Shown here: in pieces, positions 469-45,564 of the stretch | Position numbering within the stretch: the first letter of the stretch is position 1 | How the letters are laid out: the number at the start of each line of letters is the position of its first letter | NCBI RefSeq assembly: GCF_019710745.1 | Contig: NZ_JAHKJW010000012.1 | Span: 94,179 to 158,178, forward strand | Length of the DNA stretch: 64,000 nt | Source: Streptomyces beigongshangae | GTDB taxonomy: Bacteria > Actinomycetota > Actinomycetes > Streptomycetales > Streptomycetaceae | Reading direction: 5' to 3' | Notes under the pieces: generated by a model | What the model saw: the letters and a program-made list of their open reading frames with translations, nothing else | Database searches by the model: none | What the model was told of the DNA's origin: nothing | Made by a program: the position numbers and the translations under genes

Positions 469-581
469 GTACGCGCCCGATCCGCGGAATGGGAGCGGAA
501 GCCGTCCCCGGTGTTCGGATGCCTCCCAAACGCTGCCTGGCGGAATCACCGTGGGCAATGAGAGCGAAGGGAGAGGATGAC

Positions 582-3209
582 ATGTCCGAGGGTCTGCTGA
601 AATCCGATGCATTGCCCGACGGCGATCCGCGCGGTGCCGGCACCGGTGAGGGGACGGGGCCGGGTGACCGGCTCACCGAGGCTCACCTCGCTGAACAGCA
701 TGCCTACTGGGCACATCGGCTCGATGGTCTTCCGGTACTGCGACTGCCGACCGACCGGCCACGGCCGACTGCGCCGGGCACGGCGCGCGCCGTCGCCGGG
801 TTCCGGGTGCCTGCGGAGATCGTCGAGCAAGCGGACGCCCTGGCGAGCAGAGTCGGCGGAACACTGTTCACCGTCCTGCTCTCCGCGTCCCAGGTACTTT
901 TCTCCCGCTACGGCAGGCAGCAGGACATTCCGCTGGCCACCATGGCGACCGGCCGTCTGCCGGGCCGTCCGGACGGCCGTTTCGCCAATGCCGTCGTCCT
1001 GCGGTCGGCCGTCCGGGCGGACGCCGCGTTCATGCGGTTGGCCGAACAGAACGTGCAGCTCGTCGAGGAAGCGATGGCCAACGCGGACCTGCCTTTCGCA
1101 GACTCCGTGAACACGTCGACGCCCAGTGGCACCGATCGTGGCTCCCCGCCCGCACCGGTGCTGGTGGTTCTGCGGGATGCCGGCGCGGCCGAGACGCCCC
1201 AGCCGTTCGACCTCACGATCGACTGCCGGCCGACCGGTACGGGTGAGCTTGCCGGCGCCCTCGTCTACGACCCGGAACTGTTCGAAGCGGCCACCGTCCA
1301 GCGGATGGCCCGGCACCTGACGGTGCTGCTGGCCGCCGCCGTGCGGGATCCGGTGACGCCGGTGGGCGACCTTCCTTTGCTGGGCGAGGAGGAGCGGCAC
1401 GCACTGCTCGGCGAGTGGGCCGTCAACCAGGTGGACCTGCCGGTATGGCCCTGCGTGCACGAGCTGGTCGGTGAGCGGGCCCGGTCGCAGCCCGACGCGG
1501 TCGCCGTGGTCGCCGGCGCAGGCTCGACGACCTACGGACAGTTGGACACCGCAGCCAACCGACTGGCTCATCTGCTGGTGTCCGGCGGAACCCGGCGGGG
1601 CGGTGTCGTCGCCGTGTGCCTGCCGCGTGGCCCGGAACTGGTCACCGCACTGCTCGCCGTCCTGCGCGCCGGCTGCGCCTATCTGCCGCTGGACCCCGGG
1701 TACCCGGCAGAACGGCTGGGCTTCATGCTCGCCGACGCCGACGCGTCGGTGTGCGTGACGCAGAGAGGGCTGGTCGGGAAGTTGCGTGAGGCGACCGACG
1801 CCGGCTTCGTCGTGCTCGACGAGCTGGAACGGGAACTGGCCGCCCAGCCCGCCGTGCCGCCGGACCTCGCGGTCTCCGGGCGTGACGCGGCGTACGTGAT
1901 CTACACGTCCGGCTCGACCGGCAGGCCGAAGGGAACAGTGGTCGAGCATCGTTCGATCACCCGGCTGTTGTGCGAGGCCGACTACATCCCGCTGCGACCC
2001 GATGACGTGGTCGCCCAGGGTGCCGATGCGAGCTTCGACGCGGCGACCTTCGAGATCTGGGCGCCGCTGGCCGCGGGCGCCCGGATGGTGGTCGTCGACA
2101 AGGACACGATGCTCGACCCGGTGGCGCTGACAAAGGCGCTGACCCGGTACCGCATCAGCACCCTGGTGCTCACGACAGCGCTGTTCAACCAGGTCGCCGC
2201 CGCGCGGCCCGATGCGTTCGCAACGCTGCGCCACCTGCTCTTCGGTGGTGAGGCGGTCAATCCGGACCGAGTGGCACAGGTGCTGGCGGCTGGTCCGCCA
2301 GGGCGTCTGATCCACAGCTACGGGCCCACCGAGACAACCACCTTCGCCACCTGGCACCTGGTGGAGCGGGTCGACGGGCACCGTACGGTGCCCATCGGCC
2401 GGCCGGTCGTGAACACCACCGTCCATGTGCTCGACGAACGGCTGAACCCGGTGCCGACAGGTGTGGTCGGTGAACTGTTCATCGGCGGGCCAGGGGTTGC
2501 GCGAGGATACCTGGCCCGTCCCGGTCTCACGGCGGAACGCTTCCTGCCCGACGTCTTCGGCACCGGACGGGGGGACCGGCTGTACCGCACCGGTGATCTG
2601 GTGCGGTGGTCGCCGCAGGGCACGCTGGAGTACGTCGGCCGGGTGGATCGTCAGATCAAGGTCCGCGGTTTCCGGATCGAACCGAACGAGATCGAGCTCG
2701 TGCTCCAGCAGCATCCGGAGGTCGAAGCGGCAGTGGTGATCGCACGCGACGACGGTGAGCACAAACGCCTCGTCGGCTACGTCCGCCCCGGGCCGGGGCA
2801 CCGGCCCGAACCGGCCGCGCTGCGGGATTTCGTCGGGAACCGGCTCCCGGAGTTCATGGTCCCCGCGGCTGTCGTCCTGCTCGACGATTTTCCGCTCACC
2901 CCGAGCGGCAAGGTCGACCGGGCCGCGCTGCCGGCCCCGGAGCGTGTCGCGGACACCGAGGACCACGTCGCGCCTCGTACGGACGACGAGCGCGTACTCG
3001 CCGCCATCTGGGCCGATGTGCTCGACCTCGACCGCGTGGGGGTGACCGACAACTTCTACGAGCTCGGCGGCGACTCCATCCTGGGGATCAAGGTCGTCGC
3101 CAAGGCCCGGGCGGCGGGCGTGCCGATCTCGGCCAAGGCGTTGTTCCGCCTCCAGACCATCGCGGCGCTGAGCGACGAGGCGGCGGCGGACACCGCACCC
3201 GTCGACTGA
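582..3209 (+). CDS. Standalone NRPS protein: truncated C, A (aliphatic amino acid), T
   Basis: Residues about 30-275 match only the C-terminal half of a condensation domain (YW..L.G.P with LPTDRPRP, up to the linker). The HHxxxDG active site is absent, so this part cannot form peptide bonds. A complete adenylation domain follows (about 289-800; TSGSTG near residue 441, YGPTETT, RTGDL, SGK near the end), then a thiolation domain with GGDS (Ser near 832). By alignment to GrsA the pocket reads DAFVLGSTFK, close to Val/Ile-type codes. A lone loader with no C or TE partner suggests that it hands its amino acid over in trans; the obvious receiver is the C-A*-T module of the next NRPS, whose A domain is broken. 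ATG 582 follows GAGAGGATGAC and is preferred to an upstream GTG at 489. The thioesterase gene starts 32 bases downstream. Confidence 0.9.
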   Translation: MSEGLLKSDALPDGDPRGAGTGEGTGPGDRLTEAHLAEQHAYWAHRLDGLPVLRLPTDRPRPTAPGTARAVAGFRVPAEIVEQADALASRVGGTLFTVLLSASQVLFSRYGRQQDIPLATMATGRLPGRPDGRFANAVVLRSAVRADAAFMRLAEQNVQLVEEAMANADLPFADSVNTSTPSGTDRGSPPAPVLVVLRDAGAAETPQPFDLTIDCRPTGTGELAGALVYDPELFEAATVQRMARHLTVLLAAAVRDPVTPVGDLPLLGEEERHALLGEWAVNQVDLPVWPCVHELVGERARSQPDAVAVVAGAGSTTYGQLDTAANRLAHLLVSGGTRRGGVVAVCLPRGPELVTALLAVLRAGCAYLPLDPGYPAERLGFMLADADASVCVTQRGLVGKLREATDAGFVVLDELERELAAQPAVPPDLAVSGRDAAYVIYTSGSTGRPKGTVVEHRSITRLLCEADYIPLRPDDVVAQGADASFDAATFEIWAPLAAGARMVVVDKDTMLDPVALTKALTRYRISTLVLTTALFNQVAAARPDAFATLRHLLFGGEAVNPDRVAQVLAAGPPGRLIHSYGPTETTTFATWHLVERVDGHRTVPIGRPVVNTTVHVLDERLNPVPTGVVGELFIGGPGVARGYLARPGLTAERFLPDVFGTGRGDRLYRTGDLVRWSPQGTLEYVGRVDRQIKVRGFRIEPNEIELVLQQHPEVEAAVVIARDDGEHKRLVGYVRPGPGHRPEPAALRDFVGNRLPEFMVPAAVVLLDDFPLTPSGKVDRAALPAPERVADTEDHVAPRTDDERVLAAIWADVLDLDRVGVTDNFYELGGDSILGIKVVAKARAAGVPISAKALFRLQTIAALSDEAAADTAPVD

Positions 3210-3241: not shown

Positions 3242-4018
3242 GTGCGCACACAAAGACCTGGCCTCAAGGGACGTCTGGTTCCCGAGAACCGATACCTGTG
3301 GCGTGCGCGGCAGCCCGGGGCACGGCACCGGATCGTCTGCTTCCCCCACGCGGGCGGCGGCGCCAACGCGTATGCGAACTGGGCGCGCAGGCTGTCGGCC
3401 GACATCGAACTGGCGGCCGTGCAGTTGCCGGGCCGGCAGAACCGGCTCGCCGAGGACCCGATCACGGACGTGGGCCGACTGGTGAAGGAGATCGTCGCGG
3501 ACCTGCGCCCCGCGTTCGACGGGCCGTTCTCCTTCTTCGGGCACTCCTGCGGGTCGCTGCTGGCCTACGAGGTGGCGAGAGCGCTGCAACTGCAGGGCGG
3601 TCCCCGGCCGAGCCGGCTGTTCGTGTCCGCGCAGTCCACGCCGGAGGTGATCTGGACGGGTCCGAAGCTGCACGACCTCCCTGAGCGTGAGTTCCACGCC
3701 GCCGTGCTCAGCCTCGGGGGATTCGACGAGGAGGTGAGCGCGGACCAGGAGGTCATGGACGAACTGGTACCGGTTGTCCTTGCCGACTTCCAGCTCTGGG
3801 AGAGGCACCACATCGCCCTCGTGCCCCCGCTGGACTGCCCGATCACCGCTCTGGTCGGGCAGTCCGACTGGCGGGCGCCGCTGGAAACCGTCGAGGGGTG
3901 GAGCGAGTACACCTCGGCACCGTTCACGACCGAGGTCTTCCCCGGCGGTCACTTCTACCTGACCGAGCAGGGCAACAACGTCCCCGGGTTCGTGAGCCGG
4001 ACCCTCCTGGGGACGTAG
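3242..4018 (+). CDS. Type II thioesterase
   Basis: Alpha/beta hydrolase (258 aa) of the external (type II) thioesterase family of NRPS/PKS clusters, which usually clears misprimed or stalled thiolation domains. Visible features are CFPHAGGGANAY near the N-terminus, the nucleophile elbow GHSCG with Ser102, a late Asp, and GGHFYL with the catalytic His near residue 237. The GTG start has GGAGGG just upstream. It follows the standalone A-T gene as part of one operon and converges on the DAHP synthase gene across a perfect palindrome. Besides proofreading, it could act as an aminoacyl shuttle between the standalone T domain and the module with the dead A domain; the sequence does not decide this. 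Confidence 0.92.
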   Translation: MRTQRPGLKGRLVPENRYLWRARQPGARHRIVCFPHAGGGANAYANWARRLSADIELAAVQLPGRQNRLAEDPITDVGRLVKEIVADLRPAFDGPFSFFGHSCGSLLAYEVARALQLQGGPRPSRLFVSAQSTPEVIWTGPKLHDLPEREFHAAVLSLGGFDEEVSADQEVMDELVPVVLADFQLWERHHIALVPPLDCPITALVGQSDWRAPLETVEGWSEYTSAPFTTEVFPGGHFYLTEQGNNVPGFVSRTLLGT

Positions 4019-5638: not shown

Positions 5639-5693
5639 GCCTTGCCCCCTTGTGTTGTGCTGTTGCCATGGGTCGGATGCGCACGGTCCCCGG

Positions 5694-6665: not shown

Positions 6666-6691
6666 TGCGGCCTCCTTCTCTGGTGTCAGGA

Positions 6692-7974: not shown

Positions 7975-7990
7975 GAACGTTCCCTTCGCT

Positions 7991-8681: not shown

Positions 8682-11600
8682 GTGGGGGGAGGGGCCGTGG
8701 GACGAGCGGGCACCGGTGCCGACGGTGGCGCACGATCTTTTCCGGAGCTGTTCGACCACTGGGTGACGGCGGTGCCCGATGCGGTGGCCGTGGAGTCCGG
8801 CACCGAGTCGTTGACCTACCGGGAGCTGCACGAACGGGCTGAACGGGTGGCGAGTGGGCTGCTCGCGTCCGGTGTGCGGGCCGAGTCCGTTGTCGCGGTC
8901 GCCTCGCGCAGGTCGGTGGACTGGGTGGTCGCGGTGCTCGGGGTGTTGCGTGCGGGTGCGGCGTACCTCCCGCTGGACACCTCGCACCCGGTCGGACGTC
9001 TCGTGTACATGATCAACGGATCCGGCTGCACCCTGGTACTGGTGGACAGGTCCGCCCTCACGGACCTGCCCGGGGTGACGGCGCGGGTTCTCGGTCTCGA
9101 CGAGCTCGACGGGGACGTCCCGGTGCCGGGGTTCCCGCGGCCCGCGCAGAGTGCCTACGTCATCTACACGTCGGGTTCCACCGGTCGGCCGAAAGGCGTG
9201 GTGGTCACCCACGGCGGACTCGCGGGGTTGGCCGCCACGCACTCCGGCCGGCTCGGCGTCACCCGGGGCAGCCGGATACTCCAGTTCGCCTCCCCGGGGT
9301 TCGACGCCTCGGTGTGGGAGCTGTGCATGGCCTTCTTCTCCGGCGGGACGCTGGTGCTGGCGGATGACGCGGCTCTCGCCCCGGGTGGCCCGCTCGCCGA
9401 GACTCTGACGAACCGTCAGATCACCCATGTGACGCTGCCGCCACCCGTGCTGGCCACGCTCCCGCCCGGAGCGATGCCCGCCGTCGAGTACCTGGTGGTC
9501 GCCGGGGACGCGACCACGCCGAATCTCGTCGAGGCATGGGCGGACGGCCGGAAGATGATCAACGCGTACGGCCCCACCGAGACCACGGTGTGTGCCACCA
9601 TGAGCGATCCGCTGGTCGCCGACGGCCGGACACCGACCATCGGACGGGCTGTCACGGGTGCGCGGGTGTACGTGCTGGACGCCGCGCTGCGTCCGGCCCC
9701 GCCCGGCGTCGTGGGCGAGCTGTACGTGTCCGGTCCCCTGCTGGCCCGCGGCTACTCGGGCAACCCGGGGGAGACCGGGGCCCGGTTCGTCCCGGACGTG
9801 TCGGGTCCGCCCGGCGGCCGGATGTACCGCACCGGGGACCTGGCGACATGGTCGGCGGAAGGCACCCTCGTCTTCCGCGGCCGGGCCGACACCCAGGTCA
9901 AGATCCACGGTGTACGCATCGAGACCCATGAGGTGGCGGCCGTTCTCGCCGGACATCCCGGTGTCGCGGACGCGGTGGTCGTGGTCCGTGAGACACGGTC
10001 GAGCAAGCAGCTCGTCGCCTACGTCGTGCCGCGGGAACGGGCGGAGCGGTCGGCCGGCGTGCCGAGGGACTCCTACGGAAGCCTGGCACTCGAACCGGTT
10101 CTCTCCGTCGGTGACCTGCGCGCGTTCGCCGCGCGGCTCCTGCCCGCGCCGATGGTTCCGGCGGCGTTCGTGCAACTGGACCGGATTCCCCTCACCCCCA
10201 ACGGAAAGCCCGATCTCCCGGCGCTGCCGGAGCCCCGGCAGCGGCAGACGGCGTACCGGGCGCCACGCGACGAGACGGAAGCGGCACTCGCGCAGCAGTT
10301 CGCCGAGGTGCTCGGGCTCGAGCAGGTGGGCGTCGACGACGATTTCTTCGCCGTCGGAGGCGACAGCATCCAGTCCATCCAGGTGGTCTCACGTGTGCGC
10401 GGGAGCGGTGTGCAGATCAGTGCCCGGGACGTTTTCGAGCGGCGGACGGTGGCCGCCCTGGCCGAACTCGTGGCAACGCGGTCAGTGGTGGGGCCGACCA
10501 CTGCGCTCGCCGAACTCGACGGCCGCGGCACCGGGACGATGCCGCTGCTGCCGGTCGCGCGGTGGATCCGGGGCTGGGGCCCGGGATTCGGCCGCTTCCT
10601 GCAGGCGATGGTGCTGTCCCTGCCCGAAAGGATCGACGAGGCGGCCCTGACCGCGACCCTGCAGACCGTGCTGGACCACCACGACATGCTGCGGGCACGT
10701 CTGGTCGGGGACGAGATCGAGGTGGCGCCCACCGGTACGGTTCCGCCCGCTGTGGACCGGGTCGACGGTGTCGACGCGTCCGGACCCGCCTGGCACCAGG
10801 CACTGGCGCGGGAGCTGGACAGGGCCGCCGCCGCCCTGGATCCGTCCTCGGGGGCCGTCGCCCGCTTCGTCTGGTTCGACGGCCGGCCGGGCAGGTTGCT
10901 CGTGGTTCTGCACCATCTTGTCGTCGACGGGGTGTCCTGGCGCATCCTGCAGTCCGATCTGGCCGACGCGTGGGCCGCCGTCCACGAAGGGCGGGAACCG
11001 CGGTTGCCCGAGGTGCGCACCTCGATGCGCAGATGGGCGCATGCGCTGGCCGACGAGGGACGTAACCCGCGGCGGCTGGCCGAACTGCCGATGTGGCGGT
11101 CGATCCTGGACGGGCCGGACCCGCTGCTCGGCGCGCGCCGGCTGGACCCGTCGGCCGATGTGGTCGGCGCCCTGGTCGAAGTGTCCGTGACCGTGCCGGT
11201 CCCGGTCACCGAGGCGCTGCTGACCACCGTGCCGTCGGTGTTCCGCGGCGAGGTGATGGACGGGCTGCTGGCCGCGCTGGCACTGGCGCTGGTCGCGCGG
11301 CGCCAGGCCCGGGGGGAGACCGAGTCGTCCGTGCTGGTCCGGCTGGAGGGGCACGGCCGGGAGGAGAGCGTGGTACCGGGAGCCGACCTGTCGCGGACGT
11401 TGGGGTGGTTCACCACCGTGTACCCGATCCGCCTCGATCTCGCCGGTGTCGACGTCGCCGGCGCGCTGACCGGCGGCCCGGCTGCGGGCCGGGCCGTCAT
11501 GCTGGCCAAACAGCGCCTGCGGACAGTGCCTGACAGAGGCATCGGGTTCGGACTGCTGCGGCACCTGAACGACGGCACCGCGGCGGTGCTCGAGGAGTGT

Positions 11601-14600
11601 TCGACGGCGCAGGTGGGCTTCAACTACCTCGGCCGTTTCGCCCTGGCGGACGCCGGGGCCTGGAGCCGGGTCGACGTGCCCCTGCTCCGTCAGCTGGACG
11701 CCGGCCAGGATCCGAAGATGCCCGCGCCGGCCGAACTGGACATCAACGCGAGCGTCATGGAGACGGACCAGGGGCCGCGGTTGCAGGCGGTGTTCACCGC
11801 GCCGCCGGGCGTCCTGGCCCGCCATGAGGTGCAGGAGCTCGCGGACCTGTGGCGTACCGCGCTGGACGGACTGGCCCGTCACGCGCTCACCCCCGGTGCC
11901 AGCGGGCTGGTGCCTTCTGACGTGGGCCTGGTGCCGGTCACGCAGGCCGATCTGGACGGGTGGGTGCAGCAGCACCCGAACCTGGTCGACGTCTGGCCGC
12001 TGACGCCTCTCCAGTCGGGCCTGCTGTTCCACAGCATGGAGGCCGGCTCGGGCTTCGACGCGTACCAGGTGCAGTACGTCCTCGGGCTGTCGGGACCGAT
12101 CGATCCGGCGCGCATGCGCGCGGCCGGGCAGCGACTGCTGGCGCGGCACGCGGGGCTGCGGTCGGTGTTCGCGCCCGACAGCCGAGGAGAGACGGTTCAG
12201 CTCATCCTCTCCGACGCCGATCTGCCGTGGCGCGTGGTCGACCACGGAGGCATGGAGGAGGGCACGCGCGTGGCCGCGTTCGAGCGGCTGCTCGCCGACG
12301 ACCTCCGGGAGCACTTCGACCCCGTGGTGCCGCCGATGCTGCGAATGACGCTCGTCCGCAGCGGGCCCGATGCGGCGGACCTGGTGCTGACCGCGCACCA
12401 CGCGGTCGTCGACGGCTGGTCGATCCCGCTGATCGTGCGGGAACTGCTGCTGCACCTCGGTTCCGACTCCGCGAAACTGCCGGAGGAACGCAGCCAACGG
12501 GACTTCCTAGAGTGGCGTGCCGGGCAGGACCCGAACGAATCCGCGGCCGCATGGGCGCGTGAGCTGGACGGGGTCGACGGGCCGACGCTGATCGGCGGCG
12601 GACACCGTGCCGACGGCGGTGAGGGAACGGGGCAGGTGGACGCCCCGCTCTCGGCGGCGGAGTCCGAAGCGGTCGCCGCGTGTGCCGCGCGGCTGGGGGT
12701 GACGGTGAACACCCTCGTCCAGACCGCGTGGGCGCTGCTGCTGTCGAGGATGACCGGTCGGCGGGACGTCGTCTTCGGAGCCGTCGTCTCCGGACGCCCG
12801 CCCGCGGTGCCGGGCGTGGACGCGATCGTGGGCATGCTGCTCAACACGGTGCCGGTCCGCCTGGACTGCGATCCCGCCCGTACGCTCGCCGAACTGGTCG
12901 TCGACCTGCAGCGCAGGCAGGCCACGCTGCTCGACCACCACCACCATGGACTCAGTGAGCTGCATCAGGCGTCCGGCATCACAGCGTTGTTCGACACGGT
13001 GGTCGGCTTCCAGTCGTTCCCACTCGACCGGACCGGCATCGCCGCCGCGGGCCGGGCGGCCGGACTGCGGGTGCTGGGGATCCGCTCCTTCACGGTGAGC
13101 CACTATCCGTTGGCCCTCATGGTGTTCGCCGAATCCGACAGTCCGCTGCGGCCCTGCGTGCAGTACCGGCGGGACGTGTTCGACCGGACGGCCGCAACCG
13201 ACATCGCGGCCAGGTTCTCCCGGATCCTGCGCCAGCTCGCGGAGGATCCGGCGATGCGCGCCGGTGCCGTGGACGTCCTCTCGGCGACCGAGCGGGGCAA
13301 CCCGGTCGCGGAGGAGTCCGTGCCCGTCCGGACGACGATCCCCGCGCTGCTCGCCGCGCGGGCGGCGCGTACCCCCGACGCTCTCGCGGCGTGGTGCGAC
13401 GAGGACTCGCTGACCTACCGGGAGCTCGACCGCAGGGCCACCGCGGTGGCGCTGGCATTGACCGGCCGCGGTGTCGCACCGCGGACCACGGTGTCGATTC
13501 GCATACCGCCCTCGCTGGATCTCGTGATCGCGCTGTTCGCGGTGATGCGCGCGGGCGGTTGCCTGGTGGCGGCGGAGGACGACGCGGACCTGGTGCTCAC
13601 CCACCTGCCCGTGCCGGCGGCCGGAGCCGGCGCGCCGGAGCCGGTGCACCCGGGCCGGATCGCTGCGCTGCTGCCGGTCTGGGGACATCCGGACCGCCGG
13701 ACCGTCGAGGTCAGCCACGCCGTGCTCGCCGCGCGCGTCGAACACGGTTCGCCGAACACCGGCCCGATCACCGGTGTCGCGGGTGACTTCGGTCTGTGGC
13801 TGACCGACGTGCTCGGCGCGGTGTGCGTCGGAGACGGATCGGAGATCGCCGCCGGTCCCGGCGCGCGGGACGACCTGACGAAGGGGGCGGCCGTGTACGC
13901 CACGAGCGAGGGCGGTCACACGCACGGTGCCTCGTTGTATCCCGATGAGCAGGTGACCGACGAGCTCCGGTTCGGTCCACCGCCCCCGGGCGTACGGCTC
14001 TACGTGCTGGACAACGCCCTCCGCCCCGCGCCACCGGGGGCCGTCGGCGAGCTGTACGTCTCCGGACCGACACTCGGGCTGGGTTATCACGGCCGGTCCG
14101 CGACGACCGCGGCCTGGTTCGTCCCGGATCCGTTCCGCCCGAACGGATCCCGTATGTTCCGCACCGGTGAGCCGGTGCGTCGCGGGCGGAACGGCGTTCT
14201 GGAGCACCTCGGCCGTACCGACGGACAGGTGACGGTGGACGGTGTGCGGATCAGCCTGCCGGCGGTCGAGGCGTCGCTGGCCGGGCACCCGGAGGTGGTG
14301 GAGGCCACCGTGGTGGCGGGGACCGGGCCCGGCGGCCCGAACCTGACGGCATATGTGGTGGGTACGGGTGTGGACACCGGTGAACTGACCGGATTCGCAG
14401 CCGGCCGGTTGCCCCGCTGCATGATTCCGGACGAGATCGTCCTCCTGACGTACATCCCCCGCCTGCCGAACGGCAGGGTCGACGTGTCCGCGCTGTCCTC
14501 GGCGCAACGGGCGGAGCGCGTCCACCGGGCGCCGCGCGACCGGCACGAGGCGGCGCTGTGCGCGTTGTTCGCGGAGGTGCTGGAGGTCGAGGACATCGGC

Positions 14601-14807
14601 CTCGACGACAATTTCTTCGAACTGGGCGGGACCTCTCTGACGGCGACGCGGCTCAGCAGTCGTATCCGCAAGGAACTGGGCGTCACCATCTCGATCCGGA
14701 CCATCTTCCAGTCCTCCGCCATCGTCGACCTGGCGCGTGCGGTCAGGGAAGCCGGCGAGTCCACCAGGCCAGGTCTGCGCCGGATGAACAGGAGTGGCCA
14801 GTCGTGA
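8682..14807 (+). CDS. NRPS, modules 1-2: A(Phe-like)-T-E, C-A*(dead)-T
   Basis: This 2041-aa synthetase has no N-terminal C domain, so it probably starts the chain. Module 1: A domain about 20-520 (TSGSTG near 162, YGPTETT, NGK), pocket code DAWTVAAVCK, the Phe code; T with GGDS near 560; an intact epimerase (HHLVVDG near 744, EGHGRE, FNYLG). Module 2: C domain with HHAVVDG near 1239, then an A-like region of about 400 aa (1540-1940) that lacks the TSGSTG loop and the YGPTE motif, reads RTGEP where RTGDL is expected, and has Arg1932 in place of the catalytic Lys. It cannot plausibly activate an amino acid. The T domain after it (GGTSL near 1984) looks functional, so it is probably charged in trans by the standalone A-T protein. 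The GTG start follows AGGGAGGAAC; the stop overlaps the next start (GTGA). Confidence 0.93.
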
Positions 14808-17800
14808 TCCCCTTGTCTTTCGCACAGCGGCGGTTGTGGTTCGTCGACAGGTTCGAAGGGCCGTCGGCGACCTACAACGTCCCGTTCCGGCTCACCTTGG
14901 AGGGCCGTCTCGACGCTCCGGCACTGCGTGCCGCCGTGCACGACGTCGTCGCCAGGCACGAGAGCCTGCGCACCCTGATGGTGACGGACGGCGAGGGCGT
15001 GCCGTGCCAGGAGGTGCTCTCCGTCGACCAGGCGGTCGTAGACATGACCGTGATCGACGTGGCCGAACCGGATCTGGAGGCGGCGGTCGTGTCGGCTGCC
15101 GGGCAGGAACTGGACATCGCGGTGGACCTGCCGCTGCGGGCCACGCTGCTTCGCGTCCGCCCGGAGCTGCACGTACTGGTGCTGGTGATCCACCACATCG
15201 CCAGTGACGGCGAGTCGATGGCGCCGCTGGCCCGTGACCTGGCCGCCGCCTACACCGCACGGGTCCGGGACGAGGCGCCGGACTGGCCGGAACTCCCCGT
15301 CCAGTACGTCGACTACACCCTGTGGCAACGGGAGATGCTGGGCGACGAGACGGACCCGGAGAGCCTGCTGTCGAAACAGGCCGAGTACTGGCGCCAGGAG
15401 CTGGCCGGTATTCCTCAGCCGACCAGGCTCCCGCTCGACCGGCCGAGGCCGCCGGCTCCCAGCCACCGCGGCGACGTGGCCGGCGGTTCGCTGAGCCGTT
15501 CCGAACTGGCGGCGATCGAGGCACTGGCGCGGGCGCACGGAGTGACCGTGCCGATGGTGATGCAGGCGGGCCTGCTGGCCCTGCTCCAGCACCTCGGAGC
15601 GGGCACCGACATCGCCATCGGCTCGACGATCGCAGGGCGTACCGACGACCAGCTCGCCGACCTGGTCGGGTTCTTCGTCAACACGTGGGTGCTGCGTGCC
15701 GACCTGTCCGGCGGCCCGTCGTTCGGTCAGCTGCTGGAGCTGGTCAAGGACAAGGCGCTCAGCGCGTACGACAACCAGGACGCCCCCTTCGAGCGCCTGG
15801 TCGAGCTGGTGAACCCGGAGCGGTCCACCGCGTACCACCCGCTGTTCCAGGTGATGTTCACCTGGGAGGACGACTTCACCATCGATATCGAGCTGCCGGA
15901 CCTGTCCGCGCGGCTGGAGGTGCTCGACACCCGTACGGCCAAGTTCGACCTGGAGTTCAACCTCTTCCCCGACCCGGAGACCGGGGGCCTGCGCTGCTAC
16001 CTGGAGTACGCCACCGACCTGTTCGACCGCGGGACCGCGGCGGGTGTCGTGGCGCGGTACCTGGACCTGGTACGGCACCTGGCCGAGGTACCGGACCTGC
16101 CGGTGTCCCGCGCGGACACCCTGACCGCTGCCGAGCGCGACCTGCTGCTCGCGCAGTTCGCGGGCACCACGTCCGCCGTCCCCGCGCTCTCCGTCCCCGG
16201 CCTCGTCGACGTGCGGGCCGACGCCGACCCCCACGCGGTGGCCGTGATCAGCGAGGGCGTCCCGCTCACCTACGGCGAGCTGCGCACACGCGCCAACCGG
16301 GTGGCGAACGCACTGACCGGCCGGGGTGTCGGTCCCGAGGACCTGGTGGGCATCGCACTGCCGCGGACGGCCGCCCTGGTGGTCGGCATGCTCGGCATCC
16401 TCAAGTCCGGTGCCGCCTATGTGCCCATCGACCCGCAGTACCCGGGCAGACGGCTGGGCGCGATACTCGCCGACGCGCGGCCGAAGCTGGTCCTCACCGA
16501 CAGCGCGAGCTCGTCGGCGCTGCCCGCCGCGGACGTGCCGCTGATGCTGCTCGACCAGGACGTCGACGCGGCGGACGACGGTCCGGTCGACAGGGCCGCC
16601 CCGGACAACGCCGCGTACGTCATGTTCACGTCGGGCTCGACCGGCACGCCCAAGGGCGTCGTGATCACGCACGCCGGGGTGGTCAACGGCGTCCGCGCAC
16701 TCGCGGACGTCATCGGTGTGCGCACGGGCTCGCGCGTACTCGCCGCGACGTCGGTCAACTTCGACGTGTCGGTGTTCGAGATCATCACCCCTCTCTCCGT
16801 CGGCGGCTGTGTCGAGATCGTGCGCGACGGACTCGTCATCGGGGAGCGCGGCGGCTGGTCCGGCGACGTCGTCAGCACCGTGCCGTCAGTCCTCGCGGAG
16901 GTCCTCGACCAGGTGGCCGGGGACATCGGCGCCCCGACCGTCGTCCTGGCCGGCGAGGCGCTGCCGACCTCGCTGGTGCGCCGGATCCACGCTGCGGCGC
17001 CCGAGGCGCGGGTGGTCAACGCGTACGGGCAGACCGAGAGCTTCTACGCCACGACCTTCACGGCGACCGGTGACGGCGGGGAGGACGGGGAGCGCCCTGC
17101 CGCCCCGATCGGAACGCCGCTGGACAACATGCGGTGCTACGTCCTCGGCCCGGGCCTGCGGCCGGTACCGCCCGGCGTGGTCGGTGAGCTCTACGTCGCG
17201 GGTCTCATCGGCCGCGGCTATCACGGCCGCGGCGGACTGACCGCCTCCCGGTTCGTGGCCGATCCGTTCGGCCCGCCCGGTGCGCGGATGTACCGCACCG
17301 GCGACCTCGTCCGGGTCGGCCAGGACGGGGTCCACGAGTACGTCGGCCGCGACGACACCCAGATCAAGATCCGCGGCGTGCGCATCGAGACGGGCGAGGT
17401 GGAGGCCGCGCTCACCACACATCCCGGCGTCGCGCAGGCCGTGGTCACCGCCCACGAGGGCGGGTCGGGCAAGCACCTCGTCGGATACGTCGTCCCGGTC
17501 GCCGCCGGAGACCAGGGGTTCGGCGACGTGGACAGCCTCGGTGACCTGAACGTGGATCTGACGGCCGCGCTCTCCGCCCGGGACCTGCGCCGGTTCGCCG
17601 CAGAACGGCTGCCCGAGTACATGGTCCCCTCGGTCTTCGTCCTGTTGAACCGTCTCCCCCTGGCCCCGAACGGCAAGCTCGACCGGGCGGCGTTACCGGA
17701 ACCCGAGTTCGGCGCGGGGGAGTACCGCGCGGCGCGCACGCCCGACGAGGAGATCCTCACCCGCCTCTACGCCGAGGTGCTCGGAATCGAGCGGGTCGGC

Positions 17801-20800
17801 GTCGACGACGACTTCTTCGCCCTCGGCGGGGACAGCATCCGCTCGATCCAGATCGTGTCCCGCGCCAAGGCGGCCGGTCTGGAGATCACGCCGAGGGACG
17901 TCTTCGAGTGCCGGACGGCGGCGGAACTCGCGGCCAGGGCGGCGGGAGTGGTGGCCGGAGGCAGGACGGTGCTGGCCGAGCTGGAGGGCGGCGGAACCGG
18001 TTGGCTGCCGCTTCCGCCGGTGGCGAGGCACGTGCTTCACCTCGGCGGCGACGTGAACCGTTTCGCCATGTCCATGGTTGTCGAGCTGCCGGCGGGTATC
18101 CACCGGGACGGATTGCTGGCCACGCTCACCGCCGTCACCGACCACCACGACGCACTGCGGTCGCGGCTGGTGCCGGACGGCCTCGTGGTCGCCGCTCCGG
18201 GCGAGGTGGACGTGGCTCCCCTGGTCAGCAGGGTCGAATGGGACGCTCCCTGGGACCAGGACTGGCACGACCGCGCGGTGGCCGAACTGGACGCCGCCAC
18301 CGGACGACTTGCCCCGGCGGACGGATGCGTGGCCCAGTTCGTCTGGTTCGCCCCGCCGCAGGGGACGGGACGGTTGCTCATCGTGCTGCACCACCTGGTC
18401 GTCGACGGGGTGTCCTGGCGCGTCCTGCTGCCGGATCTGGCCGTCGCCTGGAAGCAGGTGCGCGACGGCGACACGGTCACGCTGCCGCCCGTCGCCACCT
18501 CGATGCGCAGATGGGCACACGCGCTGGTGACGGAGGCCAACTCGCCGCGGCGGACCGCCGAACTGCCGAAGTGGCGCGCGATCCTCGGGTCGGGGGACGC
18601 CACCCTCGGCGCCCGCCCGCTGGACCCGGCGATCGACGTGATGTCGACGGTCGGCCACGTGTGGCGGCAGGTGCCCGCCCCGGTCACCGAGCACCTGCTG
18701 ACCACACTGCCCACCGCCTACCACGGCGACGTCCAGGACGGCCTGCTCACCGCCCTGGCGATGGCGATGGCGCAATGGCGTCGCGGCCGAGGCGACTCGG
18801 CGGACCTCTCGTTGCTGGTGAACGTCGAGGGCCACGGCCGCGAGGAGCAGATCGTCCCGGGCACCGACCTGTCCCGCACGGTCGGCTGGTTCACCGTGAT
18901 GCACCCGGCGCGGCTCGACCTCGGCCAGATCGACATCAGCGGAGCGTTCGCCGGTACCCGGCAGGCGGGAGAAGCGGTCCGGGCGGTGAAGGAGCAACTG
19001 CGTGCAGTGCCGGACCGGGGCATCGGATACGGACTGCTGCGGTACCTGAACCCGGACACCGAGCCGGTCCTGCGGCGCTACCCGTCGCCCCAGGTCGGAT
19101 TCAACTACCTGGGGCGCTACTCCGCCACCGATATGCCCCGGCACCTGCACGACCTCGGCTGGTTGCAGGCCGACGGCACCACGGACCTCGTTGCGGAGCC
19201 CGATCCCGCCATGCCCGCGCTCTCGGTGCTCGACGTGCACGCGCTGGTCACCGACACCGCGGAAGGCCCGGCGCTGCTGGCGCGCTTCGACTACGCGTCC
19301 CACATCCTGACCGGCGACGACGTCGACGAGCTGGCCGGGATGTGGGAGCAGGCCCTGCGCGGCCTCGCGCGGCACGCGACCGAGCCCGGCGCCGGTGGGC
19401 TGACGCCGTCGGACCTGTCACTGGTGTCCGCGAGCCAGCACGAGATCACCGCCTGGGAGCAGGGCTACCCGGGACTGCGCGATGTCTGGCCGCTGACACC
19501 GATGCAGTCCGGCCTGCTGTTCCACGCTCAGCTCGCGGACGACGGCTTCGACGCCTACCGGATGCGGCTGGTGTTCCACCTGGAGGGCCCCGTCGACCCG
19601 GCCCGGACGCGTCGTGCCGGGCAGGCGCTGCTCGACCGTTACCCCAACCTGCGGGTCGCGTTCGCCCGCGACGCGGCAGGAGACCGGGTGCAGGTCGTGC
19701 AGGACCGGGTCGACCTGCCGTGGCGCCATGTCGACCTCGGCGCACTCGCCGAAGCCGAACGCGGGGCGGTCCTCGACGCGCTGCTCGACGACGAGCACGC
19801 CACGCACTTCGACCTCGCGGCGGCCCCGCTGCTGCGGCTCACCCTGGTCACCATCGGACCGGACCGGTCCGAACTGGTGCTCACCGCCCACCACGTGCTG
19901 TTCGACGGCTGGTCCGTGCCGCTGCTGATGCAGGACCTGCTCCACCTCTACGCGTCCGACGGGGACGATTCGGGACTGCCCAGGGTGCGCGGCTACCGCG
20001 ACTTCCTGCACTGGCTCGGCACACAGGACCACGAGGCCGGGGCGGCGGCCTGGGCACGGGAACTGGCCGGCATCGAGGAACCGACCCTGCTCGTCACCCG
20101 GCGGCCCGACGAGCCCGCCACCTCCGGTATCGGTCAGGTGGACGTCCCGCTCGGCGCGGACAGGGCGCAGGCTCTGGAGCGCCTGGCGAGCGAGCTCGGA
20201 CTGACGATGAACACCGTGGTACAGGGCGCCTGGGCCCTGGTGCTCGGCTACCTGACCGGGCGCACCGAGGTGGTCTTCGGCGCCGCCGTGTCCGGCCGGA
20301 CACCCGAGGTGGCCGGCATGGACTCGATGATCGGACTGTTCATCAACACGCTGCCGGTGCGGGTCGACTGCCGGCCGGCGCAGACCCTTCGCGGCCTGCT
20401 GACCGAGCTGCAGCGCCGCCAGGGCGCGCTGCTGGCGCACCAGCACCACGGGCTGCTCGACCTCCACCGGGCGACCGGGCTGAACGTGCTGTTCGACACC
20501 CTGGTCGGCTACGAGTCGTACCCGATCGACTCGGTCGCGCTCGCGGAGGCCAACGACGCCGCGGGCTTCCGGGTCACCGGTGTCAGTCCGCTCAGCGGCG
20601 CCCACTACCCGCTCGTGGTGATGGCGTTCGGTGACCCGAGGCTGCGTGTCGGCCTGCAGTACCAGCACGAGGTGTTCGACCGCCGGACCGTGGAGACCTT
20701 CGCGGCCCTCGTGGCACGGGTGCTGGAGCAGCTCGTCGCCGACCCGGACACCCGGGTGGCCCAGGTCGACCTCTCCGGGCCGGCGGAGCACGGCAGGGCC

Positions 20801-23745
20801 CCCGGCACGGCCGGCGCCGCCGCGGGACAGTCGATCCCGCAGCGGTTCACCGCGCAGGCCACGGCCACCCCGGACGCCGCAGCCGTCGTCTTCGGTGACA
20901 CCGTGCTGAGCTACGCGGAACTGGACGCCCGGGCCGACCGGCTCGCAGCGGTGCTCGCCGCGCAGGGCGTGACTCGCGAGACGGTGGTCGGGGTCGCCCT
21001 GCCGCGGTCCGCCGACCTCGTCGTGACCCTGCTGGCCGTGCTCAAGGCGGGCGGCGCCTACCTGCCGGTGGACCCCGCCTACCCGGCCGACCGCGTGGAC
21101 CTGATGCTGCGCGACGCCCGGCCCGGACTCGCGGTGACGGTGGCGGAGTTCGCCGGGCTGCTCGGGCGGAACTGCCCCACTCTGCTGCTCGACGAACCCG
21201 CCGCGGCGCGGCGGATCGCGTCGGCTGCTCCGCTTCCCCCGCAGGAGCACCACGCGGACCAGCAGGCGTACGTGATGTACACGTCCGGGTCGAGCGGTGT
21301 CCCCAAGGGTGTCGCCGTGCCGCACCGGGCGGTCGTCGGCCTGGCCGAGGACCGGCACTACCACGGCGGCGCCCACGAACGGGTGCTGGCGCACTCGACG
21401 CAGGCGTTCGACGCCTCGACCTACGAACTGTGGGTCCCGCTGCTGGGCGGCGGGCGGGTCGTGATGGCGCCCCCCGGACGGCTGGACACCGCGACGCTGT
21501 CGGCGCTGGTGGCCGAGCACGAGGTCACCGCGCTGTGGCTGACCGCCGGACTGTTCAGCGTCGTCGCGGAGGAACACCCGGCCTGTCTGGCGGGCGTCCG
21601 CGAGGTCTGGACGGGTGGTGACGTGGTGCGGCCCGCCGCGGTCGAGCGGGTCATGCGGGCCTGCCCCGGACTGACCGTCGTGGACGGCTACGGCCCCACC
21701 GAGACGACGACGTTCGCCACCTGCCACCCGATGCCGTCGCTGGACGACGTGTGCGACCCGGTGCCCATCGGCAGGCCGATGGACGGTATGCGCGCCCATG
21801 TACTGGACGCCGCGCTGCGACCGGTGCTGCCGGGCGTGCCCGGTGAGCTGTACATCGGCGGCACCGGGACGGCCCGCGGGTACGCACACCGCCCCGGCCT
21901 GACCGCCGAACGGTTCGTGGCCTGCCCGTTCGGGTCCCCCGGAGAGCGGATGTACCGGACCGGCGACATCGTGACCCGGGGCCTCGACGGAGAACTGGTG
22001 TTCCGGGGCCGAGGGGACGCGCAGGTCAAGATCCGGGGATTCCGGATCGAGCCCGGCGAGGTCGAGGCGGCGATGCTCGCCCACGACGAGGTCGCCCAGG
22101 CCGTCGTGGTGTGGAGCGGGGACGCGGGCGGCGACCGTCGCCTGGTCGGCTACCTGGTTCCCGGCGAGAGCGTCGCCGACCCGGCCGGTGCCGTCGAACA
22201 GGTCGGCGAGTGGCAGCAGCTCTACGACGACCTCTACGCGGACGCGGACGTGGCCTGGGGCGAGGACTTCAACGGGTGGAACTCCAGCTACGACGGGGCG
22301 CCCATCCCGTTGCCGCAGATGAGGGAGTGGCGGACGGCCGCGGTGGATCAGATCCTGGCCTGGTCGCCGCGCCGGGTGCTGGAGATCGGTGTCGGCTCCG
22401 GTCTGCTGATGTCCCGGCTGCTGACGGAGGTCGACGAGTTCTGGGGCACCGACCTCTCGGCGCCGGTCATCGACCGGCTGACCGAGCAGGTCCGGAGCCT
22501 GGGCTTCGCCGACCGGGTGCGGCTGCGTACGGCAGCCGCCGACCGGCTCGGCGAGCTGCCGGTCCAGCACTTCGACACGATCGTGGTGAACTCGGTCGTC
22601 CAGTACTTCCCGGATGCCGGCTACCTCGATGCCGTCCTCGCCCACGCGGTGGACCTGCTCGCCCCCGGCGGGCGGATCGTCGTAGGAGACGTCCGGTCGG
22701 CGGCGTCCCTGTCGCTCTTCCACGCCGGGGTACGCCACGCCCAGCACCCCCAGGAGCCGCTCACCGCCCGTCGCGCGGCCGTCGCGCGCGCCATGCTGCT
22801 GGACGAGGAGCTGGTGCTGGACCCGGAGTGGTTCCACGCGTGGGCCGCCCGGCACGGTGCGGTCGCGGACATCCGGCTCAAGCGCGGCGCGGCGCACAAC
22901 GAGCTGACCAGGTACCGCTACGAGGTCACCCTGCACAAGGCCGCTGGCGACGTGATCGACCTCGGCACGGCGCCGATGCTGCGGTGGGGCCACCAGGTGG
23001 ACCGGATGGACGAGCTCGCCCGCCAGTACGACGAGGGCCTGCTGCGGGTCAGTGGCATCCCGAACGCACGGCTCACCGGTGACGCCGAGGCGTCGGGTCT
23101 GCCCGTGGGACCGGCGGTCGATCCCGAGCACCTCGTGCAGTGGGCGACCGGGCACGGCCTGGGGGTGGTACTGGCCCCGGCTGCGGCACCGGAGTGCTTC
23201 GACGCGGTCCTGGTCCCCCGGGAGACCGCCCGTGGGCGGGCCCTCGCCGGCGGGTTCGTCCCCGTCGGCCGGTCGCACCTGGCCAACAACCCGGCCAGGG
23301 CACGCCGGATCGGCGCGCTCGTGGCCGAGGTGCACGACCGCCTGCGGGCCCGGTTGCCCGAGTACATGGTGCCGACCACCCTGATCGCGGTCGGGGAGAT
23401 TCCGCTGACCGCCAACGGCAAGGTCGACCGCAGGGCCCTGCCCGTGCCGGATCAGCCGGGCGAGTCGTCCGGCCGCGGTCCGCGCAACGCGCGTGAACAG
23501 CTTCTGTGCGGACTGTTCGCGGACGTGCTCGGTCTCGACCGGGTGGGCATCGACGACGACTTCTTCGCCCTGGGCGGCCACTCACTGCTGGCCACTCGGT
23601 TGATCAGCCGGATCCGTACCGCGTTCGACGTGGAGATCCCGATCTCCACGGTCTTCGACGCCACCACGGTCGCCGAACTGGCCGGCCACCTGTCGGTGGA
23701 CTCCCGGGTCCGGCCCGCCCTGTGCCGGGTCACGGACCGGCCCGA
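14804..23745 (+). repeat. First copy of the duplicated dimodule (C-A-T-E-C-A-MT-T)
   Basis: Modules 3 and 4 share domain order and closely similar sequence with modules 5 and 6 (about 23746-32520). The corresponding C-domain starts (PLSFAQ.RLWF) lie about 8.9 kb apart and the T-domain motifs ([11 protein letters not shown]) about 8.8 kb apart. Boundaries are approximate. Confidence 0.6.
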
Positions 23746-32700: not shown

Positions 32701-33259
32701 GATGGTCGACGACTACGTGGACCAGGTCCTGCGTGTGCAGCCGGACGGGCCGTTCACCCTGATCGGACTCTCGCTCGGAGGCACTCTCGGACACGCGATG
32801 GCTGCCGAACTGCAGGCCAGGGGACACCGGGTGGACGTCCTCGCCCTGCTCGACTGCGTTCCCGCCTCGTGGTTCGCCGACAACGAGATCCTGGGCCTGG
32901 ACGAGGCGCGGCACTTCTTCGGCCGCCATCTGCCGGCGCTGGCGGGACAGTCCGGCGGCGGCGGACGATCCCTCGTGGACAGTACGTCGGCGATCATGGT
33001 CGAGCACATGCGGATGCTGAAGGACTTCCAGTCCCCCGTGTTCCGAGGCGACGTGCTGTTCTGCAACGCCACCGAGGACAAGGACGAGTCCTACGCCGGA
33101 CTGTGGTCGGCGCACGTCACCGGAACGGTGAGTGAACACGACATCCACTGCAAGCACATCGACATGCACCTGCCGGGCCCGGTTGCCGAGATCTGCCGGG
33201 CCATCACCGCGGTGCTGGCGACCACCCAGTCCGCTCCGACCCCGGAGGAGAACTCATGA
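14804..33259 (+). CDS. NRPS, modules 3-6: C-A-T-E, C-A-MT-T, C-A-T-E, C-A-MT-T-TE
   Basis: Giant 6151-aa synthetase. Landmarks by residue: C1 HHIASDG 130; A1 605, code DVFTVAAYAK; T1 1007; E1 HHLVVDG 1196; C2 HHVLFDG 1696; A2 2156, code DAYWWGGTFK (Val-like), interrupted after motif A8 by a methyltransferase (VLEIGVGSG 2525); T2 2923; C3 HHIATDG 3111; A3 3584, code DVFCVATYAK; T3 3972; E3 4163; C4 NHVLYDG 4657; A4 5102, code DILQLGLIWK (Gly), with methyltransferase VLEIGVGSA 5468; T4 5853; TE GLSLG with Ser5990 and a late KHIDMHLP His. The TE should release a cyclic product. GTG 14804 overlaps the preceding stop, with AGGAG at 14790. Codon 964 (17693-17695) is TTA, so translation should depend on the bldA tRNA. 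C4 has Asn for the first His of its active site; the second His, the catalytic one, is kept. Confidence 0.94.
23746..32520 (+). repeat. Second copy of the duplicated dimodule
   Basis: Modules 5 and 6 repeat the C-A-T-E-C-A-MT-T layout of 14804-23745. The first A domains of both copies share the rare [10 protein letters not shown] stretch. The second A domains differ strongly in their core (Val-like against Gly code) while the flanking C, methyltransferase and T parts stay alike, which suggests exchange of the A core after duplication. Boundaries are approximate. Confidence 0.6.
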
Positions 33260-44919: not shown

Positions 44920-45564
44920 TCACGGCAGACGGCTCATGAGATCCGCTGTCTGTGCGTGCCGGGTGCAGCCACGCGCGGCGAAGGACCGCACCACCCGCTC
45001 GCGGACCTCGGAACGCTGCTCCTGGCTGAGCTTGAACATCCCCTCGGCCTTGGTCACCCGGACGCGGAAAGCCCCCACGCCGGGGACTATCTTGCGGAAA
45101 TAATCGACGGATTCACTCATGTCCCAGCCCTCGCCGAATTCCTTTTCGAAGGCCCGCACCGTCGCCTGCACGACGCCCAGCGTATCCTCTGTTGAATTTA
45201 TCCTCTCCACCACTCCGTGAACGTGCACCGAGGTGAAATTCCAGGTCGGGGCGGCCGGCGTGACGCCATAGACGGCAGGTGAGACGTAGGCGTGCGGTCC
45301 GGTGAACGTCAGCAGGATGACCGTTCCGGTGTCCAACGCGGCCCAGTGCGGGTTGGCACGGTTCATGTGGCCCAGCAGGGGCATGCCCGCCAGGTCGGGG
45401 GCGGGGAGTTCTTCCCAGCGGGGGTCGGTGATGACGGGAAGGTGGGTGGCGAACGGTCCGTCGGCGGAAGATCCGTTGCTGGCCATCAGCGCCAGCGGGT
45501 TCTCGCGCATAAGATCGACCATCCACGAGACGTCTGATTCTCGATAGTGTCCGGGGACGAACAT
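44920..45564 (-). CDS. FMN-binding PaiB-family protein
   Basis: A protein of 214 aa of the PaiB / FMN-binding negative regulator family, a split-barrel flavin fold. The family start MFVPGHYRESD is clear, followed by ENPLALMASNG, LPVITDP, LLGHMNRANPHW, VILLTFTGPHAYVSP and WNFTSVHVHG. PaiB in Bacillus affects sporulation and protease genes; many homologues may simply be flavin or heme oxygenases. I start it at 45564 because the family begins there. An in-frame ATG at 45690 with a better ribosome site (GGAGG) would add a 42-residue N-terminal extension of no known motif. It converges on the LmbU gene. Confidence 0.85.
   Translation of the reverse strand: MFVPGHYRESDVSWMVDLMRENPLALMASNGSSADGPFATHLPVITDPRWEELPAPDLAGMPLLGHMNRANPHWAALDTGTVILLTFTGPHAYVSPAVYGVTPAAPTWNFTSVHVHGVVERINSTEDTLGVVQATVRAFEKEFGEGWDMSESVDYFRKIVPGVGAFRVRVTKAEGMFKLSQEQRSEVRERVVRSFAARGCTRHAQTADLMSRLP

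What the first reader, a model, noticed from the sequence alone, without database searches (positions are those of the whole stretch)
13300..14520. A dead adenylation domain inside module 2, probably served in trans by the standalone A-T protein
The region between the C domain and the second T domain of the 2041-aa NRPS is an A domain of about 400 aa that lacks the TSGSTG phosphate loop and the YGPTE motif, and has Arg1932 where the catalytic Lys should be. C and T around it look intact, so the module should still extend the chain if its T domain is charged by another protein. The only spare loader is the truncated-C/A/T protein at 582-3209, which has an aliphatic-type pocket (DAFVLGSTFK) and no chain-elongating partner of its own. 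Ramoplanin and enduracidin modules that lack an A domain and are loaded in trans are precedents. Keeping a degraded A scaffold instead of losing it outright is unusual and may provide docking.
Basis: partly seen in the sequence, partly recalled or inferred. Interest (0 to 1): 0.82.

Follow-up and report, generated by a model that had tools for sequence, protein, structure and literature searches.

The report
Dead adenylation domain with trans loader
In a bacterial peptide-antibiotic assembly line one station has lost the part that picks its amino acid, and a separate helper protein, itself a broken station that kept that part, most likely supplies it, so two damaged machines add up to one working station.

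Summary
The 2041-aa NRPS (8682-14807) is A-T-E-C-A*-T; its second A domain (about 13335-14531) lacks A4 and A5, keeps only a wrecked P-loop, and carries A7 D->E, A8 K->T and A10 K->R (Arg1932). C and T around it keep their motifs. Trans-loading is well supported by comparison, not by experiment. In 6 of 6 the module-2 A is dead with C and T intact, and a separate protein has live A and T but a dead C: in 3 the second His of HHxxxDG is Q or R, in 3, the window included, that half of C is missing. The loader C sequences group beside L-type C, not the type that follows E domains. A thioesterase with GHSCG and a PlyE-like FAD enzyme are present in 6 of 6. Lunaemycin A has N-hydroxy-Ile here, so the window probably loads an N-hydroxylated aliphatic residue. 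Dead A domains served in trans are known (kutzneride, albicidin). Reciprocal decay of both partners seems new, and argues against the published 'module 3' role of Lun20.

The parts
13335..14531 (+). A*: dead, shortened adenylation domain of module 2
   Evidence: Pfam pieces only; motifs and coordinates; aligned with five orthologs
13668..13706 (+). wrecked P-loop (A3) remnant [13 protein letters not shown]
   Evidence: alignment with full-length dead orthologs, coordinates
14469..14483 (+). A10 motif NGRVD, Arg1932 in place of the catalytic Lys
11991..13295 (+). condensation domain of module 2, HHAVVDG intact, in the clade of C domains that follow E domains
   Evidence: Pfam, motif, tree
14553..14744 (+). 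T domain of module 2, GGTSL with the phosphopantetheine Ser
   Evidence: Pfam, motif
8736..11936 (+). module 1 A-T-E, Phe code DAWTVAAVC plus A10 Lys
   Evidence: Pfam, code
489..3209 (+). loader protein: half C remnant (672-1409), live A (1473-2912), T (2994-3176)
   Evidence: Pfam, motifs intact, orthologs
3242..4018 (+). thioesterase-fold protein, GHSCG motif, next to the loader
   Evidence: Pfam; GHSCG in all six clusters
35771..36967 (+). PlyE-like FAD enzyme, proposed alpha-N-hydroxylase
   Evidence: Pfam; 67-69% to Lun21; PlyE and Lun21 roles are proposals in PMC3943440 and PMC9866976
232..387 (+). MbtH-like protein just upstream of the loader, one of six in the genome
   Evidence: PF03621 match G000:C24:94410-94565
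14558..33259 (+). second NRPS, ORF to its furthest start (it overlaps the first; the real start is probably near 14800): C-A(Piz type)-T-E, C-A(Val type)-MT-T, C-A(Piz type)-T-E, C-A(Gly type)-MT-T-TE
   Evidence: Pfam, codes
45049..45564 (-). piperazate-synthase-type FMN_bind_2 protein, the only match in the genome
   Evidence: PF04299

Best explanation
Module 2 is split between two proteins. The assembly line keeps the C and T of module 2 with an inactive, partly deleted A. The separate loader (489-3209) keeps a live A and T but only half of an inactive C. Inferred order: the loader's A, probably with the MbtH-like protein, activates an aliphatic amino acid (Ile or Val type, or a modified relative) onto its own T; the PlyE-like FAD enzyme hydroxylates its alpha-nitrogen there; the residue reaches the Ser of T2, either moved by the conserved GHSCG thioesterase-fold protein or by direct trans-loading from the loader's A; the module-2 C joins it to D-Phe from module 1. 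Shown: domain states, their conservation, C-domain groups, gene content. Inferred: substrate, hydroxylation on the carrier, route of transfer, any scaffold role of the remnants.
For: Six clusters, same split: module-2 A dead 6 of 6, its C (HHxxxDG) and T Ser intact 6 of 6; loader A motifs and T Ser intact 6 of 6; loader C dead 3 of 6 (HQIAADR, HRIAADG, HRIAADT) and N-lobe missing 3 of 6. The C tree (34 rows) puts module-2 C with C domains that follow E domains, and loader C sequences in one clade (100/100) beside L-type C (91/88). The A tree (39 rows) puts the six dead A in one clade (100/99), nearest to piperazate-type A. GHSCG thioesterase 6 of 6; PlyE-like enzyme 6 of 6. Lunaemycin A, whose cluster has the same split, is cyclo(D-Phe, N-OH-Ile, D-Piz, L-Piz, D-Piz, L-Piz) (PMC9866976). 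A* segment A6-A8 has dN/dS 0.28-0.34, as low as live domains.
Against: No biochemistry. NBC_00212 keeps the A10 Lys (AGKLD) although its P-loop and A8 are broken. The loader pocket differs between the window clade (DAFVLGSTF, DAYVLGCSF, DAFVLGCAF) and Lun20 (DAFFLGVTY), so Ile is not established here. Loader T is more constrained (dN/dS 0.26-0.29) than T2 (0.33-0.47), which leans towards a use of loader T beyond mere priming. The A* middle evolves fast (0.61-0.77). With more dead A domains added, the clade of six is no longer resolved; the C tree carries a long-branch warning and the truncated rows fill 47% of its columns. PlyE-like genes do not generally go with dead A: seen near 3 of 20 further loci. 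AlphaFold models of A*-T and C-A*-T are weak (mean pLDDT 58.8 and 55.5); Foldseek matches NRPS A structures locally (E down to 1e-28) but TM-scores in the 50 rows shown are at most 0.28, so the fold of the remnant is unconfirmed.
Confidence: 0.75

Rival explanations
1. The published lunaemycin reading: module 2 is inactive and skipped, and the Lun20/loader protein is its own elongation module (module 3).
For: PMC9866976 assigns Lun20 as module 3 (C-A-T) and calls module 2 of Lun23 inactive. Residue counts of the product fit this reading too.
Against: The C of Lun20 reads HQIAADR, of NBC_00212 HRIAADG, of G042 HRIAADT, against HHxxxDG; in the window, G122 and G213 the half of C with that motif is absent. 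Loader C sequences group beside L-type C, whereas the donor is D-Phe after an E domain. Module-2 C and T stay intact in 6 of 6.
Confidence: 0.06
2. The module-2 C uses the loader's T directly as acceptor and T2 is bypassed: the loader acts as a trans A-T unit that then hands the dipeptide to the next NRPS.
For: Loader T is intact 6 of 6 and more constrained (dN/dS 0.26-0.29) than T2 (0.33-0.47).
Against: T2 keeps its Ser in 6 of 6, and its dN/dS overlaps that of live domains; a bypassed T should decay further.
Confidence: 0.14
3. Another A of the same line, such as the Phe A of module 1, loads T2, as SidD A1 and CmnA-A1 do for their A-less modules.
For: Such loading is known (PMC10192304 passages; PMC12400406, abstract start in the listing).
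Against: Lunaemycin A has N-OH-Ile after D-Phe, not a second Phe (PMC9866976), and the loader would have no evident use.
Confidence: 0.03
4. A* is a drifting relic with no role, kept only because the frame must stay open between C and T. This is compatible with trans-loading and concerns the scaffold only.
For: Middle part near neutral, with length changes between orthologs; other dead A domains in G053 and G163.
Against: A6-A8 is as constrained as live domains, dN/dS 0.28-0.34 in three pairs.
Confidence: 0.3

Closest known systems
Lunaemycin cluster (BGC 28a, Streptomyces lunaelactis pSLUN1), Lun20/Lun21/Lun23/Lun24
   Same: Same A-T-E-C-A*-T protein with the same Phe code, dead module-2 A, separate Ile-type A-T with dead C, PlyE-like enzyme, GHSCG thioesterase, piperazate modules.
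   Different: There both dead domains are full length; in the window clade A4-A5 of A and the N-half of C are gone. The paper reads Lun20 as module 3; 'in trans' occurs 0 times in its main text. Downstream modules differ (MT domains in modules 4 and 6 here).
Kutzneride KtzN/KtzH
   Same: Stand-alone A transfers its amino acid to a module whose own A* is non-functional; A* said to be critical for this (PMC10587159 section 6, citing Strieker 2009, which is not held and was not read; KtzH as the acceptor is recalled).
   Different: Substrate Glu; no decayed C on the loader mentioned in what I read; relation by sequence not tested.
Albicidin Alb04 and the ramoplanin/enduracidin stand-alone modules
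   Same: A stand-alone A-T serves a module with an inactive or missing A (PMC8949500 passages).
   Different: Alb04 has an extra nucleotide-hydrolase-like insert. Ramoplanin and enduracidin loaders have an N-terminal extension of about 300 aa said to match nothing known but shown, for ramoplanin, to be needed; here the N-terminal part is half a C domain by Pfam.
Polyoxypeptin/aurantimycin PlyC-D-E-I and ArtC-D
   Same: Free A and T, a PlyE-type enzyme and TEs are proposed to make N-hydroxy residues (PMC3943440, PMC5031334 passages).
   Different: There the hydroxy acid is proposed to be released and re-activated by modular A domains, and ArtF-A2 and ArtH-A are active in vitro; here the modular A is dead.
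SidD/Nps6 module 2 and glidonin module 13
   Same: Truncated, inactive A kept between C and T (PMC10192304 passages; PMC10587159 section 6).
   Different: SidD is loaded by its own A1; glidonin module 13 is the terminal module and its function was left open in the section read.

Membership tests
Inactive A complemented in trans by a stand-alone A or A-T (KtzN, Alb04 type) | modular A lacks catalytic motifs while C and T around it are intact | tested here: met
   6 of 6 clusters
Inactive A complemented in trans by a stand-alone A or A-T (KtzN, Alb04 type) | live stand-alone A in the same cluster with no working module of its own | tested here: met
   loader C dead or half missing 6 of 6, by motif only
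Inactive A complemented in trans by a stand-alone A or A-T (KtzN, Alb04 type) | aminoacyl transfer to the modular T in vitro or loss of product without the loader | not testable with these tools
   needs experiment
Lunaemycin-type N-hydroxy-Ile/piperazate cyclic hexapeptide clusters | A-T-E-C-A*-T starter with Phe code, PlyE-like enzyme, piperazate A codes | tested here: met
Lunaemycin-type N-hydroxy-Ile/piperazate cyclic hexapeptide clusters | ornithine N-hydroxylase and piperazate synthase genes | tested here: met
   PF04299 in window 45049-45564; a PF13434 match just upstream, C24:92043-93086, one of nine in the genome; activity not shown
Lunaemycin-type N-hydroxy-Ile/piperazate cyclic hexapeptide clusters | Ile-specific loader pocket | tested here: inconclusive
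   DAFVLGSTF against DAFFLGVTY in Lun20
Lunaemycin-type N-hydroxy-Ile/piperazate cyclic hexapeptide clusters | product structure | not testable with these tools
   no metabolite data
SyrC/CmaE-type aminoacyl shuttle | Cys nucleophile in the alpha/beta-hydrolase shuttle (criterion recalled) | tested here: not met
   GHSCG keeps Ser at the nucleophile position in all six; a Ser shuttle remains possible
Polyoxypeptin-type release and re-activation | modular A able to re-activate the free N-hydroxy residue | tested here: not met
   A* lacks the motifs

The most novel reading that the evidence does not exclude
The two broken halves fit each other: the half C left on the loader and the A6-A8 and C-terminal part left of A* form a trans interface that rebuilds one C-A-T module, and they were cut down together on one branch (window, G122, G213) because the interface needs only these pieces. 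In that clade the loader pocket changed too, along with a prephenate-type gene set (DAHP synthase, prephenate-dehydratase-like, RraA-like, quinone-reductase-like) of which no ortholog was found in the stretches held of the other three clusters, so the residue loaded may be a new N-hydroxylated carbocyclic amino acid rather than Ile.
Probability: 0.22. Interest if true: 0.75.

Novelty: new variant of a known kind. Interest (0 to 1): 0.52.

Why it matters
It gives a natural series, from full-length dead domains to deleted ones, in which a module has been divided between two proteins by reciprocal decay. That makes the open question of why dead A scaffolds are kept directly testable by swapping remnants between the six clusters. 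It also bears on how such clusters are read: the lunaemycin paper counts the loader as a module and calls the real module inactive, whereas the loader should be assigned to the dead-A position. If the remnants form an interface, they are candidates for engineered trans-loading of unusual residues.

Tried and rejected
Rejected: skipping of the position with the loader as own module. Rejected: a rule that every PlyE-like gene marks a dead A. Of the loci listed I took the 20 best after the window's own, G122 and G213 (19 genomes): a dead NRPS A domain was seen in 2 within the first stretches (G053, G163) and in G042 after adding 40 kb upstream, 3 of 20. The other 17 showed none in the stretch held, and one of these (first locus of G351) had no A-domain hit at all. 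Several AMP-binding hits with odd motifs (in G053, G065, G121, G141, G232, G273, G282, G318, G391) I took for other ligases or partial hits by the look of their motifs, without a test. Stretches were cut by contig ends and G042 alone was extended in a way that could show more, so 3 is a lower bound. Of 34 plasmid records with a PlyE-like match I examined two, S. lunaelactis and NBC_00212; of the 15 plasmid records listed, three (H1, H2, H8).

Led nowhere: the genome-contig scan with A* gave 4 loci 25-31% identical, no ortholog. The class-wide search matched 1 of 394 genomes at E 1e-47, the window's own. G042, whose dead A is full length, had been met but did not pass the threshold; it turned up as a relative through the FAD enzyme. 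The two AlphaFold jobs gave weak models and the Foldseek search poor superpositions. Paper search with prephenate-related terms gave none. Searches for N-hydroxyisoleucine or N-hydroxyvaline with carrier protein gave one paper, already known; for inactive condensation or adenylation domains and split modules none. So I found no print of the reciprocal decay; the library lacks most subscription journals. Four papers mention lunaemycin; I read the outline, abstract, section 2.1, the first third of the figures and tables, and passages of the original, and nothing of the other three for it.

Dropped rows: in the A trees I left out domains under 380 aa except the three A* and, in the larger tree, G053's dead A, plus three repeat or partial copies of Lun20, Lun22 and NBC domains held in two loci. 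In the C tree only domains with HHxxxDG were picked by pattern, so the window's last C, which reads NHVLYDG, and any like it are missing.

Full report
Observation. The NRPS at 8682-14807 has Pfam order A-T-E-C-A*-T (Pfam calls E and C by one model, the split being mine from tree and motifs). The second A domain is matched by AMP-binding only in pieces, best at profile positions 2-77, and by AMP-binding_C. Motifs A4 and A5 are absent; A7 is FRTGE, A8 [14 protein letters not shown]10 NGRVD with Arg1932. The P-loop region survives as [13 protein letters not shown], aligned with TSGYPGGPRG of two full-length dead orthologs. C keeps HHAVVDG and T keeps GGTSL. Of 28 control A domains from six other NRPS regions of the same genome, 27 match the P-loop pattern and the other reads [10 protein letters not shown]. 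The A10 Lys pattern failed in 2 of these 28 and the A5 pattern in 1; a second look did not resolve the A10 cases.

Relatives of the truncated form. With A* as query at E 1e-47, 3 of 392 genomes of the genus match, the window's own included, and 1 of 394 of the class, the window's own. The other two, G122 and G213, carry the same set: loader 74-76% identical, thioesterase 85-86%, FAD enzyme 81-86%, NRPS 75-76%; the downstream NRPS is 51-53% and the best P450 hits are below 32%. A* of the window is 63-69% identical to theirs.

Relatives with full-length dead domains. The plasmid collection gave the lunaemycin cluster of Streptomyces lunaelactis (NZ_CP026305.1) and Streptomyces sp. NBC_00212 (regions); the FAD enzyme as query gave G042 (regions). 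In these three the module-2 A is full length but has lost the P-loop consensus and A8; A10 is R in lunaemycin, K in NBC_00212 and G in G042. Their separate C-A-T proteins have live A and T, but the C motif reads HQIAADR, HRIAADG and HRIAADT. So in 6 of 6 clusters one partner has C and T with dead A, and the other A and T with a dead or half-deleted C. A caution on motifs: the window's own last C reads NHVLYDG, so the first His can vary; the second, which is the one lost in the loaders, is kept there.

Order of events. A tree of 39 A domains joins the six dead ones with support 100/99, nearest to piperazate-type A domains (rooting is by midpoint); in a 55-row tree with dead A domains of three further clusters that grouping is unresolved. 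The lunaemycin module-2 code DVASLAAYAK is 8 of 10 like DVFSVAAYAK of piperazate A domains (and PMC9866976). I infer that the dead domain came from a piperazate-type module. A tree of 34 C and E domains puts module-2 C domains in the clade of C domains that follow E domains (10 rows, 100/99), and all six loader C sequences in one clade (100/100) beside L-type C domains (91/88) (the tool warns of long branches, and the truncated rows fill 47% of columns). A loader C of that kind, with its motif broken, is a poor candidate to take D-Phe. That is why I doubt the published assignment of Lun20 as module 3 and of module 2 as inactive (PMC9866976, section 2.1).

Selection. Nei-Gojobori dN/dS between window, G122 and G213: live A1, E and C 0.30-0.37; A* whole 0.42-0.57; A* N part 0.41-0.66; A* middle 0.61-0.77; A* A6-A8 0.28-0.34; A* C-terminal subdomain 0.40-0.68; T1 0.20-0.34; T2 0.33-0.47. 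Loader: half C 0.49-0.53, A 0.24-0.30, T 0.26-0.29; FAD enzyme 0.20-0.28, thioesterase 0.21-0.27. Both remnants are relaxed but not free, and one part of A* is as constrained as a live domain. Three related sequences give rough values.

Chemistry. Pocket codes: A1 DAWTVAAVC (Phe, the code printed for Lun23), A3 DVFSVAAYA and A5 DVFSVATYA (piperazate type), A4 DAYWWGGTF (Val type, by recall), A6 DILQLGLIW (Gly, by recall), loader DAFVLGSTF. Methyltransferase domains sit in the fourth and sixth modules and a TE ends the line. The predicted order is D-Phe, X, D-Piz, N-Me-Val, D-Piz, N-Me-Gly. By recall this resembles pargamicin A, with N-hydroxy-Ile at X; the library gave no text on its structure. 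A PlyE-like FAD enzyme is in all six clusters, and lunaemycin A has N-hydroxy-Ile at X. PlyE and the thioesterase PlyI are each needed for polyoxypeptin (PMC3943440 passages). I infer hydroxylation on the loader T and transfer to T2. How the transfer happens is open: the thioesterase keeps Ser (GHSCG) in six of six, which does not fit the Cys shuttles SyrC and CmaE (recalled) but allows a Ser shuttle; direct loading, as reported for KtzN, is equally possible.

Generality. Around 20 further PlyE-like loci, dead A domains were seen in 3 (G042, G053, G163), so the enzyme does not by itself mark a dead A. In the 55-row tree G053's dead A groups with a live A of its own NRPS (100/98) and G163's with Val-type A (98/93), which points to separate origins, though their end branches are long. 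The Pseudonocardia plasmid pFRP1-1 has a dead A and, apart, a protein with half a C and a live A but no T found, cut at nearly the same C position as the window's loader (Pfam 192-456 against 186-456): a possible second case of reciprocal decay.

Known or new. Dead or missing A domains served in trans are known: kutzneride KtzN (through PMC10587159), albicidin, ramoplanin and enduracidin (PMC8949500 passages), fungal SidD (PMC10192304 passages); free A-T proteins act in trans in WS9326A (PMC7539972, outline and first of four parts). New, as far as searches show, is the reciprocal decay of acceptor and loader, followed through stages in six clusters, and the correction it implies for lunaemycin.

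Noticed in passing
window 4110-8073, minus strand: DAHP synthase, quinone-reductase-like, RraA-like and prephenate-dehydratase-like genes are 74-87% conserved in G122 and G213, with no ortholog found in the lunaemycin, NBC_00212 and G042 stretches held; the loader pocket changed in the same three clusters. The prephenate-dehydratase match is below the Pfam cut-off.
   Followed up: partly
L027 6097-11577 (-) and 33610-35871 (+), Pseudonocardia pFRP1-1: A module with a dead A domain (no P-loop, no A10 match) and, apart, a protein with half a C domain and a live piperazate-type A, no T found: possibly a second case of reciprocal decay.
   Followed up: partly
L038 (G053), about 14460-15770, minus strand: A separately truncated dead A domain (A3 reads HAPGPRQPLLP, A10 WGTLD) with a separate A-T protein, a PlyE-like enzyme and a TE in the same contig.
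   Followed up: partly
L062 3423-6617 (-) (G163): Free-standing C-A-T whose A is dead (A3 YAPTGETTA, A10 ADGGVD), near a free A domain and a PlyE-like gene.
   Followed up: no
G351:C1:617708-618889: PlyE-like gene 66% identical to the window's with no A-domain hit within about 20 kb on either side.
   Followed up: no
window 3539-3553 and orthologs: Thioesterase motif GHSCG, with Cys after the nucleophile Ser, is kept in six of six clusters.
   Followed up: partly
window 42256-43446 (-): DDE_5 transposase gene between the MMPL exporter and the piperazate-synthase-type gene.
   Followed up: no
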